Below are positions 16,726 to 64,000 of a stretch of DNA of 64,000 bases, in pieces (position 1 is the first letter of the stretch; the number at the start of each line of letters is the position of its first letter). Below the pieces are notes generated by a model. The model did no database searches and was not told the origin of the DNA. It saw nothing but the letters and a program-made list of their open reading frames with translations. The translations under genes were made by a program, and so were the position numbers. Location of the stretch: positions 2,098,691 to 2,162,690 of the forward strand of contig CAJNDT010005556.1 in NCBI GenBank assembly GCA_905221615.1. Direction: 5' to 3'. The DNA is from Symbiodinium sp. CCMP2592 (lineage: Eukaryota; Sar; Dinophyceae; Suessiales; Symbiodiniaceae).

Positions 16726-17100
16726 CGGCTCGCTTTCCGCTTTTTGGCTTGTGGGATCCCACAAAAAGCACTATCTGGCCCAGATAGGCTCGTTTTCTGC
16801 TTTTTAGCTTGTGGGACACCAACAAAGCACTATCTGGCCCAGACAGGTTCGTTTTCCGCTTTTTGGCTTGTGGGACCCCTCCCAAAACAGCACTATTTGG
16901 CTCAGGACGGCTCGCTTTCCGCTTTTTGGCTTGTGGGATCCCACAAAAAGCACTATCTGGCCCAGATAGGCTCGTTTTCTGCTTTTTAGCTTGTGGGACA
17001 CCAACAAAGCACTATCTGGCCCAGATAGGCTCGTTTTCCGCTTTTTGGCTTGAGGGACCCCCCCAAAACAGCACTATTTGGCTCAGATAGGCTCCTTTTC
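16726..17100 (+). repeat. 60-bp minisatellite with a three-monomer higher-order unit
   Basis: Monomers begin near 16748, 16809, 16868, 16929, 16990 and 17049. Each contains CTTTTTGGCTTGTGGGA and a palindromic TATCTGGCCCAGATA-type core. Copies three monomers apart (181 bp) are the most similar, which indicates block amplification. Confidence 0.85.
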
Positions 17101-17244
17101 TCCGCCTAAGAAAAATGAAAGATGGACTGCCGGATCCTTGACATTGCTGTCTTGAGTGTCAGTCCAAATTGACTACCGGTAATTACCAGTACCACCTACA
17201 CTGCCAACTGCTACCACTATAATATTACTGCTTTTAATGTTGAG

Positions 17245-17450
17245 TCCCACAAGCCAAAAAGCTGAAAACGAGCGTATCTGAGCCAGATAGTGCTTTTTTA
17301 GTGGGCCCACAAGCCAACAAACAGAAAACGAGCCTATCTGAACCAGATAGTGCTTTTTGAGGATCTTACAAGCCAAAAAGAGGAAAACGAGCCTATCTGA
17401 GCCAGATAGTGCTTTTTTGGGGGGGTCCCACAAGCCAAAAACCTGAAAAC
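17245..17450 (-). repeat. Inverted copies of the 60-bp minisatellite
   Basis: Three to four monomers in the opposite orientation (TCCCACAAGCCAAAAAG, GATAGTGCTTTTT). They form foldback arms with 16726-17100. Confidence 0.85.
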
Positions 17451-23350: not shown

Positions 23351-23467
23351 CCCAGAGGGTCCATGTATACTACCATTATGGAATTAGGTCCCAAAAGACG
23401 ATCTCCATTATGGTTTCGGTTTTGGGGGGCCTGATTCCATAATAGTAGTGTACATAGACCCTCTGGG
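23351..23467. mobile_element. Hairpin element F14
   Basis: CCCAGAGGGTCCATGTATAC pairs with GTACATAGACCCTCTGGG. The inner arms have ATTATGGAATTAGGTCCC and CCTGATTCCATAAT. Confidence 0.9.
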
Positions 23468-23476
23468 TCTAGGTTA

Positions 23477-23588
23477 CTAGGATGCCCCGTAATACCCTTA
23501 TTCCCTTTTTGTAGTCCTAATTTCCTTATCAAGTTACCCAATACCGAAAAGGGAGCCCTTTTCATTCCTAGGCTACTCGGCATCCTTG
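23477..23588. mobile_element. Hairpin element F1, full length
   Basis: CTAGGATGCCCCGTAATACC to CTACTCGGCATCCTTG. GTTA lies on both sides, a possible 4-bp duplication. Confidence 0.9.
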
Positions 23589-23589
23589 T

Positions 23590-23692
23590 TAAAGCTTTAA
23601 CCCTAAACCCTAAACCCCTAAACCCTAAACCCTAAACCCCTAAACCCTAAACCCCTAAACCCCTAAACCCCTAAACCTTAACCGTTTAGGGT
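23590..23692 (-). repeat. Interstitial telomere-type array, CCCTAAA strand
   Basis: About fourteen CCCTAAA/CCCCTAAA units. Confidence 0.95.
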
Positions 23693-23758
23693 TCGGGATT
23701 GAAACAAGGGGCCGGGCCGCAAGTTTTGGAGATCCAGGGTTGGAGGATCCCGGACCCC

Positions 23759-23988
23759 TACTTGGAGGATCATGGGACTTAGTAAGTAAGGTTTAGGGTT
23801 CCTTTCAAGAAGGGTACTATAGGGTTCTATAATAGGGTTCCTTAAAGGGATCTATAGGGGTTCTAGAATGGAGGATCATGGGACTTAGTAAGTAAGGTTA
23901 GAAGTACCTCAGATGGGGTTATAAGTAGTTATAAGTATAGTTACCCTAATTATAACCCTAGTTACTAAGCCCCATGATCCTTTAAGTA
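23759..23988. mobile_element. Hairpin element F6 with duplicated left terminus
   Basis: The left terminus GGAGGATCATGGGACTTAGT... occurs twice, 30 bp each and identical, at 23764-23793 and 23870-23899. A 76-bp segment with TTAAAGGGATCTATAGGGGT separates them. The right end ACTAAGCCCCATGATCC closes the hairpin at about 23980. Confidence 0.85.
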
Positions 23989-24128
23989 AGGCTCCATGGT
24001 TGTTCCTCCGTGGTTTCTTCGAAGTCAAGTGGTGCCCAGGAACTTTCAAAGGCGCTTCGCCAAGAACTATAACTCTAAGGCATCATGTATCTATATTTTT
24101 CGAGGCGGTGTTCTTATTATTGTTATCA

Positions 24129-24160
24129 TATATATATATATATAGATATATAGATATAGT
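24129..24160. repeat. AT microsatellite
   Basis: (TA)n run then TAGATATAGATATAG. Confidence 0.9.
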
Positions 24161-24263
24161 GTTTTTTTGCGGGGTTCTTAACTTATAGCATACCATGCCC
24201 CGTTATCCACTGAAGCTCTAATCAAGCTAATTATTAAGGCACCTATATTCGCCAAGAGCTGCC

Positions 24264-24660
24264 TTAAGGATGCATGTGCACATCAAAATGCCCATCTATA
24301 TAGTACAAAACTGCGCATGCCTCAAACCAGCCTGCTGCCGCTGGCGAGCCACCCTTGGCCTCTCCCGCCGTATCCGTATCTGTCCTACGCCAGATTCCAC
24401 ACGGGAGAGACCCACTGAGCACGTACGACCCTGCCTTTTGGAGCTGCTGCTTTCCAACGCTGTTTCCTTGGGGCCTGGGAGGGCACGGCGAGATGCGCGT
24501 TGCAAACATTTCCTTCGCTGCTTGGGCTCGCTTGCTTCTTCTGCGAGTCGATCGCCTCGGCGACACTGCCTGGTGCCGCCACCCAGTCTTCCTTGCCGTC
24601 CTCTTCGCAACCGCACATCGGCGCGACATGTCCCAGGGAATTCGAAAGGCGCTTAATTTG
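24264..24660 (-). other. GC-rich island with overlapping open frames
   Basis: Several frames on both strands are open together for 65-128 codons, which GC-rich DNA can cause. The most protein-like is a minus frame at 24385-24618 with EEDGKEDWVAAPGSVAEAID. The island lacks hairpins and differs in composition from its surroundings, so a gene fragment is possible, but strand and frame are unresolved. Confidence 0.2.
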
Positions 24661-30361: not shown

Positions 30362-30670
30362 ACCCATGGGCTCCATAGTAGTTCCTTTTTGGGATTGCCT
30401 TTATAGGTTCCTAACCACAAAAAAATTACTGCGGAGCCTACTTAAAGGATCATGGGACTTAGTAACTAGAGTTATACTTAGGGTAACTATACTTATAACT
30501 ACTTATAGCCCCAATTAAGGTACTTAGAACCTTACTTACTAAGTCCCATGATCCCCATTCTAGAACCCCTATAGATCCCTTTAAGGAACCCTATTCTAGA
30601 ACCCTGAACCTTACTTACTAAGTCCCCTTTCTAGGATCCTAGCCACGAAAAAAATGCTACGGAGCCTATG
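30362..30670. mobile_element. F11 hairpin split by an F6 element, host arm duplicated
   Basis: F11 starts with GGGCTCCATAGTAGTTCC. Its right arm appears twice, at 30406-30440 and 30634-30668 (CGGAGCCTA at both ends, diverged within). Between them lies F6 (30439-30554) plus filler and a second F6 terminus. Confidence 0.75.
30439..30627. mobile_element. Hairpin element F6 with duplicated right terminus
   Basis: Left TACTTAAAGGATCATGGGAC pairs with GTCCCATGATCC. The right-arm piece GAACCTTACTTACTAAGTCC recurs at 30527 and 30606. The segment between contains TATAGATCCCTTTAAGGAAC. Confidence 0.85.
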
Positions 30671-31723: not shown

Positions 31724-31904
31724 ACGGTTGAAGATATAAATCCTGCATTACCTCAAGAACCCTAAACTATGATATTCCTTATTATGGGTTTTGCAGGATT
31801 TATATCCCAAAACCCCAAAACCCTATGGATCCCTTAACAGGAACCCCTACAAGGTACCCTTGTAGCTCCCTTTAAAGGAACCCTAGGATTTATATCATCA
31901 GCCG
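31724..31904. mobile_element. Hairpin element F9 with duplicated right terminus
   Basis: Left ACGGTTGAAGATATAAATCC pairs with GCAGGATTTATATC. AGGATTTATATC recurs at 31885-31896 after a 78-bp segment containing CTATGGATCCCTTAACAGGA. Confidence 0.8.
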
Positions 31905-32370: not shown

Positions 32371-33680
32371 TGCTCCAGGTCGACAGCCGCCTTTTGCACC
32401 CTTCATGATCTTCATCAAGCCACTGACCCAGCACGCAGGAGCATGACACTTGGGTGGTTGTCCATACTAGGGTCCCTTGTTGGGTCCTTATTATAATACG
32501 GCACTTAATATAAAGGGCACCAAAGCGGGACACCAATTTTAACAACCACCCATTTAGGGTTTGCCTTAATCTTGAATTCCTATAGGTATACATGTTTTAT
32601 CTGTTCCAAGGTACCTGGATTACTGCAGGTAACTGCTAGGTTCCGGCATTCAGGCGGTTTGGGAGACAACACATTAAACCCCTACTTTTTTTGTATGGGA
32701 TATCGGTATCAAGTTCGAGGAAGGCAAAAGACTCATACTGAGGTTTACTGATAAATTTCTTTTGGGCCTCGTAGCATTTTGCTTCATGATGGCTGGCAAG
32801 CGCGATAAGCCGCAGAACTTCCACCCTAGACAAACCTCTATAGTGAGGCTGCCGTTTTCCTCGGGGTAGCCCTACAAATATTGCAATGATTTTCCTTGGG
32901 TATGCGGGACATACTGCTGATGGACAAAATCCTGCGTGACCTAAGGACTCTAAACTATGGGAACTAAGTATATTCCTTATAATGGGTCATGCAGGATTTA
33001 TATCATCAACCGTATTGCAATGATTTTCCTTGGGTATGTGGGACATAGCACATGAAGCCCCTAGACCCACAGACTGACCCCAACAAACAGGCCTCACTCT
33101 GGCACGCCAAACCCAACCCAGATCTTCCAAAATCCTTTAAAATTTAGGGAATATTCCTAAATTATAGTAGGATCCCTAATATGATTATTCCTTATAATTT
33201 AGGGAGTATTTCCTAAATTAGAGTAGGATCCCTAATATGATTTAAGGTCTATTCCTTAATTAAGGGATTTTGGAAGGTCTGGGAAGGCCTGCAATTGCAT
33301 CTGCGAACCCCAAAAACTCAATCCCTAACGTTTGATGATATAAATTCTGCATTACCCATAGTAAGGAATATCCCATAGTTCCCATAGTTTAGGGTCCTTA
33401 AGGTCATGCAGGATTCACATCATCAACCGTAATCACCCAAAAGCCAGTCAACGCACCCAGGGTCTTGTAATCCCTGTCGCATTCTTCGAGACTTTCCGAA
33501 GAAGCCGCAAGTTGGGCTTCCAACACATGCAAGAGTAGCATAAACCCTACACCCTAAACACCAAAACCGTAAACCCGGCAAATATGTGGACCGGAAGTCC
33601 TCTTCCAGAGTGAACGTGCAGCCCAGGAACCTCTTATCTTTGTCATTGCTTCTGCTGATATCTGCACTCTGGGGTGGAAG
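32371..33680 (-). CDS. Candidate gene split by hairpin elements
   Basis: This is the best coding candidate. Reading leftward on the minus strand, protein-like pieces sit between hairpins. 33680-33575 contains DKRFLGCTFTLEEDF. 33541-33431 contains EAQLAASSESLEECDRDYKT and stops at F9. 33327-33284 contains LGIEFLGFADAIAGL, between F9 and F7. 33116-33048 ends SCAMSHIPKENHCN at the next F9, and after that element 32913 onward repeats MSRIPKENHCN and continues ICRATPRKTAAS. 32833-32680 contains HHEAKCYEAQKKFISK. 32450-32371, between F13 and F10, contains GQWLDEDHEGCKRRLSTW. Exact joins are not canonical and at least one frame change is unresolved. No family is recognised. Confidence 0.45.
32451..32552. 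mobile_element. Hairpin element F13 between exon-like pieces
   Basis: TGGGTGGTTGTCCATACTAG pairs with TTTTAACAACCACCCA. Confidence 0.85.
32914..33012. mobile_element. Hairpin element F9 flanked by 35-bp direct repeats
   Basis: CTGCTGATGGACAAAATCCT pairs with AGGATTTATATCATCAACCG. The 35 bp at 32879-32913 are repeated at 33013-33047 with one mismatch. The duplicated sequence is the exon-like code for MS(R/H)IPKENHCN. Confidence 0.9.
33117..33283. mobile_element. Hairpin element F7 with internally duplicated core
   Basis: CCCAGATCTTCCAAAATCC pairs with GGATTTTGGAAGGTCTGGG. The core AGTAGGATCCCTAATATGAT occurs twice in tandem, so the element is 167 bp rather than about 105. Confidence 0.85.
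33328..33430. mobile_element. Hairpin element F9
   Basis: ACGTTTGATGATATAAATTC pairs with GCAGGATTCACATCATCAAC. Confidence 0.85.
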
Positions 33681-35935: not shown

Positions 35936-36107
35936 CCTCGCCCCCCGGGGAGGTCTGCGCGCTGCTGGCGCTGAAATCGTTCGACGCGGGGAGCCTGAAG
36001 GACGGGCGTTGAAGCCTTCTTTAAGTTAGTAACTAGGGTTCCTTCAAGGGTCCCTTTAAAGGGATCTGTAGGGGTTCCTTAAAGGGATCTATACGGTTAA
36101 GGGGTAC

Positions 36108-36172
36108 TTAAAGGATCATGGGACTTAGTAACTACGGTTATAATTAGGGTAACTCTATTTATAGCTAGGTCG
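36108..36172. repeat. F6 left half
   Basis: TACTTAAAGGATCATGGGAC then AGTAACTACGGTTATAATTA; no right terminus. It is preceded by GGGATCTATACGGTTAAGGG. Confidence 0.7.
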
Positions 36173-36194
36173 GGCCTTGAAGCCTTCTTCTTTA

Positions 36195-39881: not shown

Positions 39882-40070
39882 ACGGTCTATGATATAAATC
39901 CCTAGGGCTCCTTTAAAGAGATCTTTAGGGGTACCTTTAAGGGGCTCCTTTAAGGGATCTATAGGGTTTAGGGTTGATGATAAAAAATGCATTACCTTAA
40001 GAACCCTAAACTCTGGAAATTATGGTATAGTCCTGATTACGGGTAATGCAGGATTTATATCATCAACCCC
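39882..40070. mobile_element. Hairpin element F9 with duplicated left terminus
   Basis: GGTCTATGATATAAATCC (39884) and GGTTGATGATAAAAAATGC (39971) are two copies of the left end. Between them lies CTTTAAGGGATCTATAGGGT. The right end is GCAGGATTTATATCATCAAC. Confidence 0.8.
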
Positions 40071-40804: not shown

Positions 40805-40998
40805 CTACGGTTGATGATATAAATCCTGCACTACCCATAATGAGGAATATACCATAGTTCCCATAGTTTCGGGTCCTTAAGGTAATGCAGGCTTTATATC
40901 ATCAACCCTAAACCCTATAGATCCCTTAAAGGAGCCCCTTAAAGGTACCCCTAAAGATCCCTTTAAAGGAGCCCTAGGGATTTATATCATCAACAGTA
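40805..40998. mobile_element. Hairpin element F9 with duplicated right terminus
   Basis: TACGGTTGATGATATAAATC pairs with TTTATATCATCAACC at 40893. TTATATCATCAAC recurs at 40982 after a 75-bp segment with TATAGATCCCTTAAAGGAGC. Confidence 0.85.
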
Positions 40999-43938: not shown

Positions 43939-44132
43939 TGGGGGTTTCCGAAAATCGGGGACCCTAAGAAAGTAGCCTAAATAGTAGGATCCTCATTATA
44001 AGGACCCCCAAACAAGGTAGCCCTAATTTTCGGAAACTCCAAACCCTAAACCCTTTATAGAACCCTTATAGTACCCTTATAGATCCCTTAAAGGATCCCT
44101 TGAAAGGTACCCCTAAGTTTCGGAAACTTCCA
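43939..44132. mobile_element. Hairpin element F4 with duplicated right terminus
   Basis: ATGGGGGTTTCCGAAAATCG pairs with CCCTAATTTTCGGAAACTCC (44021-44040). CCCTAAGTTTCGGAAACTTC recurs at 44111 after 70 bp of CCCTAAACCC and TATAGATCCCTTAAAGGATC. Confidence 0.85.
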
Positions 44133-52269: not shown

Positions 52270-52950
52270 TTTGGGGGGGTTAGGGATCTCTGGATCTATA
52301 GGGTTTAGGGGCTTAGGGTTTAAGGATCTAGGGATCAAAAGGGCTTAGGGTTTAGGGCTCTATAGGGTTCAGGGGTTTAGGGATTAGGGATCTAGGGATC
52401 TATAGGGTTTAGGGGCTTAGGGTTTAGGGATCTATAGGGTTTAGGGGTTTAGGGGCTTAGGGTTTAGGGATCTATAGGGTTCAGGGGTTTATGGGTTAGG
52501 GATCTCTGTATCTATAGGGTTTAGGGGCTCAGGGTTTAGGGATCTAGGGATCAAAAGGGCTTAGGGTTTAGAGATATATAGGGTTCAGGGGTTTAGGGGT
52601 TAGGGATCTCTGGATCTATAGGGTTTAGGGTTTAGGGATCTAGGGATCAAAAGGGCTTAGGGTTTAGGGATCTATAGGGTTCAGGGGTTTAGGGATTAGG
52701 GATCTAGGGATCTATAGGGTTTAGGGGCTTAGGGTTTAGGGATCTAGGGATCTATAGGCTTTAGGGGTTTAGTGTTCAGGGATCTAGGGATCTATAGGGT
52801 TTTTTGGTTTAGGAGCTTAGGGCCCAGGGATCTAGGGATTTACAGGGTTCAGAGGTTTAGGGTTCACGGATCTAGGGTTCAGAGATTTAGGGTTTAGGGA
52901 TCTATAAGATCTTAGGGTTTAATTTGGGTTTTATAAGCTTAGGGGCTCTT
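52270..52950 (+). repeat. Large tandem array of GGGATCTATAGGGTTTAGGG units
   Basis: About 650 bp of GGGATCTAGGGATCTATAGG and GTTTAGGGGCTTAGGGTTTA blocks with a period near 60 bp. It is the longest array of the telomere-like/GATC unit in the window. Confidence 0.9.
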
Positions 52951-54584: not shown

Positions 54585-54849
54585 AGTCAGGAACTCCCCA
54601 AAATCACCTCTGATCATCGACTGACCACAGTACAATGTCCGCTTTAAGAGTACATTGCAGCTTCATTAGCAGTAATCATCATAGAAGCACCTCACGGAAA
54701 GACCCTATAGGAGTGCAATTCTGATTCTTGAGGCCCCAATACTAAACCCTTATAGTAGATACAGTAGCCCTTTTCCTAAGGCCCCTGTACTACACCCTTA
54801 TAGTATATAGCCTTTATAGCAGCCCTTATGGACCCCTTTAAAGAAACCC

Positions 54850-54955
54850 TACGGTTGATGATATAAATCCTGCATTACCCATAATATGGAATATACCACA
54901 ACTCCCATAGTTTAGGGTCCTTAAGGTCATGCAGGATTTAGATCATCCACAGTAG
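54850..54955. mobile_element. Hairpin element F9
   Basis: TACGGTTGATGATATAAATC pairs with GGATTTAGATCATCCACAGT. Confidence 0.9.
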
Positions 54956-55147
54956 TAATCAGGAGCTGATTCTTGAGGCCCCTATACTAAATTTTTATAG
55001 TTATAGTAGTTCTTATAGTAGCCCTTATAGATCCCTTTAAAGGAACCCTATTACCGAAGGCTGGATCGCCGGGATGGTGGCGAAGCGCCTCTCTGCACTG
55101 ACGAAGAGCCTGGCGAACATCCTCTCAGCAGCAACTCGGTGCACATT

Positions 55148-57506: not shown

Positions 57507-57732
57507 TGGAGTTTCCTAAAATTAGGGGTTTAAACCCTAAACCCTAAACCCTAAACCCTTTAAAGGGATCCTTTAAGGCTTCCAAAAAGGGATCTATAAG
57601 GGTTCCAAAAAGGGTTTGGGGTTTAGGGTTTAGAGTTTTCGAAACGAGGCGTACCTTATTTAGGGGTCCTTACAACGAGGATCCTACGATTTAGGGTGCT
57701 ATATTAGGGTCCCCTATCTTCGGAAACTCCCA
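57507..57732. mobile_element. Hairpin element F4 with duplicated left terminus
   Basis: GAGTTTCCTAAAATTAGGGG (57509) and GAGTTTTCGAAACGAGG (57633) are two copies of the left end. Between them are CCCTAAA repeats and AGGGATCTATAAGGGTTCC. The right end is CTTCGGAAACTCCCA. Confidence 0.85.
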
Positions 57733-62397: not shown

Positions 62398-62516
62398 TGA
62401 ATCCGCGTATCAAACCCTGATCTCTCGGGGCAGGTGCTATATTTCTATTTCTAAGCTCAATTACAGTTATTGAGGCCGTAAAATTAAAGCCATCAAGAAG
62501 ATTTTTCTTATGTTGT

Positions 62517-62647
62517 CGGTAGGATCAGCATGAGCGGCCCCGTTAAATTCGAAGCTCTAAACGTTAGACCCTGAATCCTAAGCCCTAAATCCTGATAAAA
62601 GCCCTAAACCCTAAACTTTATTCCTCGGCAGGATCAGCATGAACGGC
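62517..62647. repeat. 22-bp direct repeats around CCCTAAA-like filler
   Basis: CGGTAGGATCAGCATGAGCG (62517) and CGGCAGGATCAGCATGAACG (62626) flank about 87 bp rich in CCCTAAA/TCCTAA motifs. Confidence 0.8.
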
Positions 62648-63796: not shown

Positions 63797-64000
63797 TACT
63801 TTGAGGATCATGGGACTTAGCAAGCAAGGTTATAAGTACCTCAATTGGGGCCATAAGTAGTTATAAGTATAGTTACCGGAATCATAACCCTAGTTACTAA
63901 GTCCCATGATCCTTTAAGTAGACCCTAAGTCCCCTCTTATACTAGAACCCCTATAGATCCCTTTAAAGGAGCTCTTTAAGGAACCCTGGTTACTAAGTCC
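63797..64000. mobile_element. Hairpin element F6 with duplicated right terminus, cut by window edge
   Basis: TACTTTGAGGATCATGGGAC pairs with GTCCCATGATCCTTTAAGTA. After a segment with TATAGATCCCTTTAAAGGAG the right-arm text GGTTACTAAGTCC reappears at the window edge. Confidence 0.85.

What the first reader, a model, noticed from the sequence alone, without database searches (positions are those of the whole stretch)
23764..23899. Recurrent unit (TATAGATCCCTTTAAAGGAACC plus CCCTAAA) sits between duplicated hairpin termini
Eight cases in three families: F6 at 23.79, 30.55 and 63.92 kb; F9 at 31.81, 39.90 and 40.91 kb; F4 at 44.04 and 57.53 kb. In each, 12-30 bp of the element end occurs twice with a 57-103-bp segment of the same sequence type between. 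At right ends the segment reads C-rich; at left ends it reads G-rich, so its orientation relative to the element end is constant (57.53 kb is mixed). A chance arrangement is unlikely. It may be a second, unit-specific insertion, or a repair/extension product adding telomere-like filler at element ends.
Basis: seen in the sequence. Interest (0 to 1): 0.85.

Follow-up and report, generated by a model that had tools for sequence, protein, structure and literature searches.

The report
Telomere-like modules extending hairpin transposon ends
In this dinoflagellate genome many families of tiny hairpin-shaped jumping genes carry, at one end, the same telomere-like DNA cassette followed by a second copy of their own tip, and these enlarged elements have multiplied and in places grown into tandem arrays, which shows how jumping genes can turn into satellite DNA.

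Summary
In the window 6 of 8 cases are clear, 39.90 kb is a decayed sister of 40.91 kb, 57.53 kb is weak; two pairs share one insert. Genome-wide (1.098 Gb; dinoflagellate by spliced-leader motif) the unit has 24,752 places, reversed control 0. F6 hairpins are MITEs with a 2-bp, mostly TA, target duplication. The structure is [hairpin][CCCTAAA repeats + unit + second copy of the last 12-31 bp]n. Composites form subfamilies (1,429 and 588 junction places); 25 of 40 outer F6 ends keep TA; n reaches about 23 copies of 107 bp. Orientation bias beyond the end is 5.1:1 (F6) and 4.1:1 (F8), 0.6:1 in a control family. Best reading: hairpin ends acquired telomere-like filler by template switching, then moved as larger MITEs and expanded in tandem. 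The acquisition step is inferred. MITE-satellite composites are known; one telomere-like module recurring in many end types is the new variant.

The parts
23761..23986 (-). F6 composite MITE bounded by TA (23759-23760 and 23987-23988): hairpin plus one module at its left end
   Evidence: sequence read directly; hairpin arms
23763..23793 (-). distal (outer) copy of the F6 terminus, 31 bp identical to the proximal copy
23794..23868 (-). C-rich unit filler, 75 bp
23869..23899 (-). proximal copy of the F6 terminus
30441..30626 (+). F6 composite sharing the filler of 23.79 kb: hairpin, proximal copy 30527-30547, spacer 30548-30605, truncated distal copy 30606-30626
63886..64000 (+). F6 right end (proximal copy from 63886), TAGACCCTAAG..unit filler, distal copy 63982-64000 cut off by the window end
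31795..31896 (+). F9 right end: proximal 31795-31806, filler 31807-31884, distal 31885-31896
39886..39990 (-). F9 left end with nearly the filler of 40.91 kb (filler about 39902-39972), decayed end copies; coordinates by eye
   Evidence: not recovered by the script
40890..40994 (+). F9 right end: proximal 40890-40906, filler 40907-40977, distal 40978-40994, followed by AG-TA
44014..44128 (+). F4 right end: proximal 44014-44038, filler 44039-44103, distal 44104-44128
57513..57625 (-). F4 left end, mixed C-rich and G-rich filler; weak case
36022..36166 (-). truncated F6 plus unit plus truncated F6 end, flanked by a 23-bp direct repeat (35999-36021 and 36167-36189, 21 of 23 identical)
32914..33012 (+). 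F9 hairpin without module, the 'empty' architecture; flanked by a 35-bp direct repeat (34 of 35 identical)
   Evidence: fold z-score -5.5

Best explanation
The feature is a modular extension of MITE ends. SHOWN: F6-type hairpins are short TA-target MITEs; many copies carry, beyond one end, a module made of CCCTAAA repeats, then a 23/24-bp unit, then a second copy of that same terminus; composites often end in TA again, recur as subfamilies with fixed joints, and can hold 1, 2, about 6 or about 23 tandem modules. INFERRED: each family's first composite arose when DNA synthesis entering the terminus stalled at the hairpin, switched by CCC-type microhomology onto abundant telomere-like DNA, and switched back to recopy the terminus. 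Because the outermost copy is a usable end, the transposase could then move the composite as one larger MITE, and unequal exchange changed the module number, making an incipient satellite. Orientation is constant because most affected termini are themselves C-skewed when read outward, so the C-rich reading offers more matching joints.
For: MITE nature: of 36 F6 elements with both ends, 33 start and 32 end in TA; of the four exceptional elements three match on both sides (CA..CA, TG..TG, TG..TG), so the dinucleotide is a target duplication. One F6 and two F9 hairpins fold with z -5.5 to -7.2. Composites: junction GGAACCCTAGTTACTAAGTCCC (up to 1 mismatch) at 1,429 places, control 0; of 40 fetched, 30 have F6 interior upstream against 0 of 200 random places, and 25 of 40 distal ends have TA at the exact position. 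F9 junction 588 places, control 1; 15 of 20 fetched show F9 hairpin sequence directly upstream, by eye, in L120 only its right part. Among 40 F6 loci taken in list order, 5 are composites by eye. A scan for two F6 ends 30-250 bp apart on one strand found 5 pairs, all with unit-type filler. Tandem: L069 about 6 modules, L070 two; L109 an F6 hairpin followed by 23.3 copies of 107 bp. Generality: 27 of 47 unit loci touch a hairpin end with C-rich outward, 1 of 47 only in the opposite sense, against 112 and 78 of 1000 random positions; flank duplication and hairpin signals exceed mispaired flanks, permutation p <= 5e-5 each. Orientation: F6 1651 to 324, F8 1379 to 337, control family Fa 185 to 289. 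End skew: of 11 end types touched by units, 10 are C-skewed outward; the control Fa is G-skewed (end strings typed by eye). Proximal and distal copies agree more within than between elements (2.03 against 2.58 mismatches in 27 bp, none of 10,000 permutations as low, 31 of 40 loci). Template switching in TIR elements followed by transposition (FoSTeST) is published for animals (PMC8277862, passages).
Against: No event was caught in the act: no orthologous empty site or sister genome was available. In the systematic 264-kb sample the looser test (any C- or G-rich 60 bp beyond an end) gives F6 16 C to 8 G of 46, but F9 4 C to 9 G of 22 and F4 2 to 2 of 17, so the bias of F9 and F4 rests on the unit-bearing copies alone. 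The Fc family carries units although its end is not C-skewed, and Ft is C-skewed with no composite seen. A filler drawn freely from the genome should vary; it is nearly always unit-type (L080 and part of L073 differ). F6 and F8 share a joint (TAG[A/G]CCCTAAA), which fits exchange of a finished module between related families as well as repeated switching. 19 of 47 unit loci have no listed hairpin end nearby. With unit words masked, only 9 of 47 loci have a duplication at p < 0.05. Microhomology was judged by eye, not tested. The background sample is one contig plus the window, and 5,000 of its bases read N. No transposase for these ends was searched for.
Confidence: 0.58

Rival explanations
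1. The unit is its own mobile sequence: a C-rich RNA with a fixed 3' end (..GGAACCCTA) is reverse transcribed from a nick inside the hairpin terminus (TPRT-like, or telomerase-like), leaving a 12-31-bp target duplication.
For: In loci not selected by that joint the outer joint is ..GGAACCCTA at 23.79 and 31.81 kb..GGAGCCCTA at 40.91 kb..GGAACCCT at 63.92 kb, while the inner joint varies; the 60 junction loci were selected by this joint and do not count. Duplication lengths 12-31 bp suit TPRT. The polarity equals G-strand synthesis from a 3' end. Duplications of 23-24 bp flank unit-bearing or telomere-like inserts in otherwise unrelated DNA at window 35999, window 62516 and L150.
Against: Of the 19 unit loci without a listed hairpin end, 1 (L150) has a flank duplication at p < 0.05. 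Outer joints differ at 44.04 kb (GGTACCCCTA) and in the two L017 copies (GGTACCC). The order CCCTAAA then unit is the same as in standing arrays (L003, L142, L148), which suggests copying from DNA. No reverse transcriptase or unit RNA was looked for.
Confidence: 0.19
2. End bypass: a MITE landed at a TA just inside another element whose right part was already unit plus TIR; transposase then used the outer TIR, and this composite spread, with modules later exchanged between families.
For: In F6 the proximal end is complete to TA in 28 of 31 junction loci (counted), and termini within arrays end in TA. L074 looks like a free unit-TIR piece.
Against: Proximal ends in other families are often truncated (F9, Fg, Fc; some F8: complete in L143 and L167, shortened in L149, L156 and L169, by eye). 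About ten end types would each need such a nesting. Distal copies tend to match their own element's end.
Confidence: 0.16
3. Background: MITEs that target TA land in abundant CCCTAAA tracts, and the rest is coincidence in a telomere-word-rich genome.
For: 384 CCCTAAA in the window where 33 are expected; plain TA insertions in telomere-like tracts exist in both orientations (GTA-AACCCTAAA and GTA-GGGTTTAGGG).
Against: Plain insertion predicts no orientation bias, as roughly seen in the control family Fa (185 to 289), but F6 and F8 show 5.1:1 and 4.1:1; it does not predict a second copy of the terminus, 1,429 and 588 junction places, or tandem modules.
Confidence: 0.03

Closest known systems
miDNA4 and similar satellite-bearing Tc1/mariner MITEs of Xenopus (Scalvenzi and Pollet; seen only as summarised in passages of PMC12628747)
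   Same: A short non-autonomous element of TA type carrying a tandem repeat whose copy number varies from one to many; microhomology-guided capture proposed.
   Different: Here the repeat lies outside one complete end and each monomer includes a copy of the element's own terminus; the captured part is telomere-like; about ten end types share it.
Xstir MITE plus tandem-array composites (Hikosaka and Kawahara) and Tetris foldback element (Dias et al.), both seen only as cited in passages of PMC12628747
   Same: An element end or interior becomes the monomer of an emerging satellite.
   Different: As summarised there the monomer is element-derived; here it is a hybrid of a telomere-like unit and the terminus.
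Pack-TIRs and the FoSTeST model (PMC8277862, passages)
   Same: Filler captured by template switching at TIR elements, with microhomology, then multiplied by transposition; tandem changes at foldback TIRs.
   Different: Pack-TIRs capture varied host DNA inside the element; here one recurrent filler sits at the end together with a terminal duplication.
Interstitial telomeric sequences inserted at double-strand breaks (recalled, no paper read)
   Same: Telomere-like DNA between short duplications of the break site.
   Different: Filler is mostly a 23/24-bp unit, not pure repeats, and it is amplified by transposition.
Introners of dinoflagellates (PMC7789003, passages; PMC11453091, passages)
   Same: Hairpin-forming short elements in dinoflagellate genomes.
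   Different: No intron position or splice site was examined here; the elements studied have 2-bp TA-type target duplications.

Membership tests
TA-target MITE (Tc1/mariner-like or Stowaway-like) | Terminal inverted repeats, about 100 bp, hairpin fold | tested here: met
   one F6 and two F9 folded
TA-target MITE (Tc1/mariner-like or Stowaway-like) | 2-bp TA target duplication | tested here: met
   36 F6 elements, 33 start and 32 end in TA; three of four exceptions matched on both sides. F9 and F4 only by eye
TA-target MITE (Tc1/mariner-like or Stowaway-like) | Cognate DDE transposase elsewhere in the genome | not tested
MITE-satellite composite (miDNA4 type) | Tandem monomers of variable number carried by the MITE | tested here: met
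   1, 2, about 6 and about 23 modules
MITE-satellite composite (miDNA4 type) | Stand-alone arrays without the MITE | tested here: inconclusive
   unit-only arrays exist (L003, L140, L164), but no hybrid-monomer array without a hairpin was seen; L109 starts with a hairpin
Pack-TIR / FoSTeST | Microhomology at the joints and a parental copy of the filler | tested here: inconclusive
   joints read by eye; arrays with the same order exist; no statistical test of microhomology was made
SINE/LINE-type retroposon | Variable target duplications around copies in unrelated DNA | tested here: inconclusive
   a few, 23-24 bp (window 35999, window 62516, L150); 1 of 19 unit loci without hairpin end at p < 0.05
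Telomerase-type interstitial telomere insertion | Filler of pure telomere repeats | tested here: not met
   filler is CCCTAAA repeats plus a 23/24-bp unit

The most novel reading that the evidence does not exclude
Each module is a scar of a miniature chromosome end: a break inside a hairpin terminus was capped by subtelomere-like unit plus telomere repeats, in the polarity of a real chromosome end (terminus, then unit, then TTTAGGG on the 3' strand), and was later fused back onto the intact hairpin end. Such telomere-capped breaks would have happened in about ten MITE end types and then been copied by transposition. Whether the unit lies next to true telomeres was not seen here.
Probability: 0.1. 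Interest if true: 0.85.

Novelty: new variant of a known kind. Interest (0 to 1): 0.6.

Why it matters
Dinoflagellate genomes are large and repeat-rich. Here one telomere-like module has been taken up by about ten MITE end types, nearly always in one sense, and in at least one place has grown into a satellite whose monomer is part MITE terminus, part telomere-like DNA. Intermediates (plain hairpin, one module, two, six, about twenty-three) sit in one genome, so the path from transposon to satellite can be followed step by step, and the template-switching model can be tested on many families at once.

Tried and rejected
Long target duplications as the rule for hairpins: rejected. Of 59 window hairpins 5 have flank repeats at p < 0.05 where 3 are expected, the top three lying in arrays or overlapping hairpins; of 36 F6 elements 6 reach the 95% level of mispaired flanks, the two highest being a composite (L050) and an insertion between telomere-type flanks (L039). 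Single cases do stand out (32879, 35999, 62516). L154 looked like a 19-bp duplication but proved to be a duplicated stretch of about 80 bp. Amoebophrya as source: considered, dropped because of genome size. Pfam on three window ORFs gave nothing above cut-off; Rfam none at gathering score; tRNA none; phage records none for 23400-24300. The masked-flank test loses sensitivity because the mask also hides parts of termini. The hairpin-end catalogue was made partly from the same 47 loci, so its enrichment is partly circular; a locus with ends of both senses was counted under the C-rich-outward sense, in the background too. Six listed unit places were skipped because they were already held as F9-junction loci (L110-L115), and L007 was dropped as overlapping L006. 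One search kept 31 of 40 loci (9 dropped for a poor or missing proximal match) and gives only a small difference; unit core within 75 bp outward of 54 exact F6 ends, 6 C-rich and 3 G-rich (two of these with 6 errors) against about 1.5 expected each, so that small sample alone is weak. Counts from the genome search are lower bounds and include tandem arrays and overlapping matches: 17 of the 100 places listed lie in one array. One search was an abandoned tabulation; the paper (PMC11508785, passages) was not used.

Full report
Source. The window lies in contig C4940 of a 1.098-Gb assembly.

Observation. The unit is present at 18 window places with up to 3 mismatches, none in shuffles. 39.90 kb is a decayed inverted sister of 40.91 kb; 57.53 kb is weak and mixed. 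23.79 and 30.55 kb share one filler. The window therefore shows about six histories. Among 147 C- or G-rich window segments, flanks repeat each other with score 15 or more in 9 where 1.3 are expected, 23.79, 63.92 and 40.91 kb among them; a second scan, which left out repeats of telomere-type words, holds 30.55, 31.81 and 40.91 kb among its 46 pairs.

The hairpins. F6, F9 and F4 are short elements with terminal inverted repeats; one F6 and two F9 folded with z -5.5 to -7.2. Of 36 F6 elements with both ends, 33 start and 32 end in TA; of four exceptional elements three agree on both sides (CA..CA, TG..TG, TG..TG), so the dinucleotide is a target duplication. F9 composites are commonly bounded TA-CGGTTGATG..CATCAACCG-TA, and in L123 an F4 sits inside an F9 at a duplicated TA (by eye). 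These are TA-target MITEs; a cognate transposase was not looked for.

Genome-wide counts. The unit (up to 2 mismatches) has 24,752 places, reversed control 0. The F6 terminus has 24,830 exact places. The distal F6 junction has 1,429 places, control 0, the distal F9 junction 588, control 1. Among 40 F6 loci in list order, 5 are composites by eye: L030, L047, L049 and L062 at a right end with C-rich filler, L050 at a left end with G-rich filler. Among 40 F6-junction loci (three of them picked for tandem spacing), 30 have F6 interior upstream (0 of 200 random places), and 25 have TA exactly at the distal end. Among 20 F9-junction loci, 15 show F9 hairpin sequence directly upstream by eye and one more has an F4 nested in it.

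Architecture. The rule is [complete or shortened hairpin end][CCCTAAA repeats, then a 23/24-bp unit, ending mostly ..AACCCTA][second copy of the last 12-31 bp]. In F6 the proximal copy is complete to TA in 28 of 31 loci, and the first joint reads TAGAC.. in 16 of 31, the others being mostly C-rich too (counted). The module repeats: L069 has about six, L070 two, and L109 an F6 hairpin followed by 23.3 copies of a 107-bp monomer made of unit plus F6 terminus. This is an incipient satellite built from a MITE end. An independent scan for two F6 ends 30-250 bp apart on one strand found 5 pairs, all with unit-type filler.

Generality. Forty-seven exact-unit loci (7 of the 8, 40 fetched by place) were not chosen for hairpins; six listed places already held as F9 composites were skipped. 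In 27 a hairpin end lies within 90 bp upstream or 75 bp downstream with the unit C-rich outward, in 1 only the opposite sense, in 19 none; random positions give 112, 78 and 810 of 1000. The end catalogue was partly made from the same loci, so the enrichment is partly circular; the orientation contrast is less so, though a locus with both senses was counted as C-rich outward. With unit words masked, flank duplication and hairpin pairing exceed mispaired flanks (p <= 5e-5 each); single-locus duplications at p < 0.05 are 8 of the 27 and 1 of the 19. End types touched by units are F4, F6, F8, F9, F10, F12, Fg, Fc, Fr, Fp and Fz; F6, F8, F10 and F12 look related to each other.

Orientation. Within 12 bp beyond the F6 end there are 1651 CCCTAAA and 324 TTTAGGG; for F8 1379 and 337; for a control family with no composite seen, 185 and 289. 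Many of the listed G-rich places are plain insertion into TTTAGGG tracts (GTA-GGGTTTAGGG), with a plain mirror class GTA-AACCCTAAA. The excess is the module class. A looser test in the 264-kb sample, any C- or G-rich 60 bp beyond an end, gives F6 16 to 8 of 46 but F9 4 to 9 of 22 and F4 2 to 2 of 17, so for F9 and F4 the rule holds for unit-bearing copies, not for flanks in general. Of the 11 end types with units, 10 are C-skewed read outward, Fc is not; Ft is C-skewed without composites seen; the control is G-skewed. This suggests, without proof, that the orientation follows from the sequence of the ends.

Mechanism. Shown: composites, their spread as subfamilies, their tandem growth. Inferred: first formation by stalling in the hairpin, template switching into telomere-like DNA at CCC-type joints, and recopying of the terminus, followed by transposition of the whole. 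This is close to the FoSTeST scheme proposed for animal TIR elements (PMC8277862, passages). Arrays with the same order (CCCTAAA, then unit) exist as possible templates (L003, L142, L148). Against it: the filler is nearly always unit-type, Fc and Ft break the skew rule, and microhomology was not tested. A TPRT-like insertion of the unit stays possible: the outer joint is ..GGAACCCTA at 23.79 and 31.81 kb and close to it at 40.91 and 63.92 kb (different at 44.04 kb and in L017), and a few copies in unrelated DNA have 23-24-bp duplications (window 35999, window 62516, L150). End bypass after nested insertion would explain the complete F6 ends but not the truncated ones elsewhere.

Relation to known systems. 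Satellite-bearing MITEs (miDNA4, Xstir) and satellites from foldback ends (Tetris) are described (PMC12628747, passages), so the kind is known. New here are the telomere-like module, its place outside one end with a copy of the terminus, and its recurrence in about ten end types of one dinoflagellate genome. Paper searches listed nothing that describes this by title or abstract start; only listings and the named passages were seen, so absence from print is not shown.

Noticed in passing
window 32879-33047: An F9 hairpin without module is flanked by a 35-bp direct repeat (one mismatch), although TA-type MITEs should leave 2 bp.
   Followed up: partly
window 62516-62647: A C-rich telomere-like insert of 86 bp lies between 23-bp direct repeats in otherwise unrelated sequence with no hairpin seen.
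   Followed up: partly
window 30398-30668: The flanks of the 30.55-kb composite repeat each other over 43 bp with 36 identities, far longer than a TA duplication.
   Followed up: partly
L114: An F9 composite with unit filler at both ends and the hairpin interior nearly gone: a new, larger inverted repeat built from units.
   Followed up: no
window 16727-17450: Two facing arrays of about 60-bp monomers; their inner parts form an inverted repeat of about 305 bp span.
   Followed up: no
window 52276-52906: A G-rich array with 32- and 104-bp periods built of TAGGG-type words, a higher-order version of the same vocabulary.
   Followed up: no
genome-wide: The control family Fa shows a mild excess of TTTAGGG over CCCTAAA outward (289 to 185); its ends are G-skewed, as the template-switching reading would predict, but target geometry could also explain it.
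   Followed up: no
window 54690-55050, flanks of L034, L035, L050: Another dispersed family (..GGCCCCTATA..AGAATAGGGTTCCTTTAAAGGGGTCTATAAGGG..) contains the unit and may account for many of its genomic copies.
   Followed up: no
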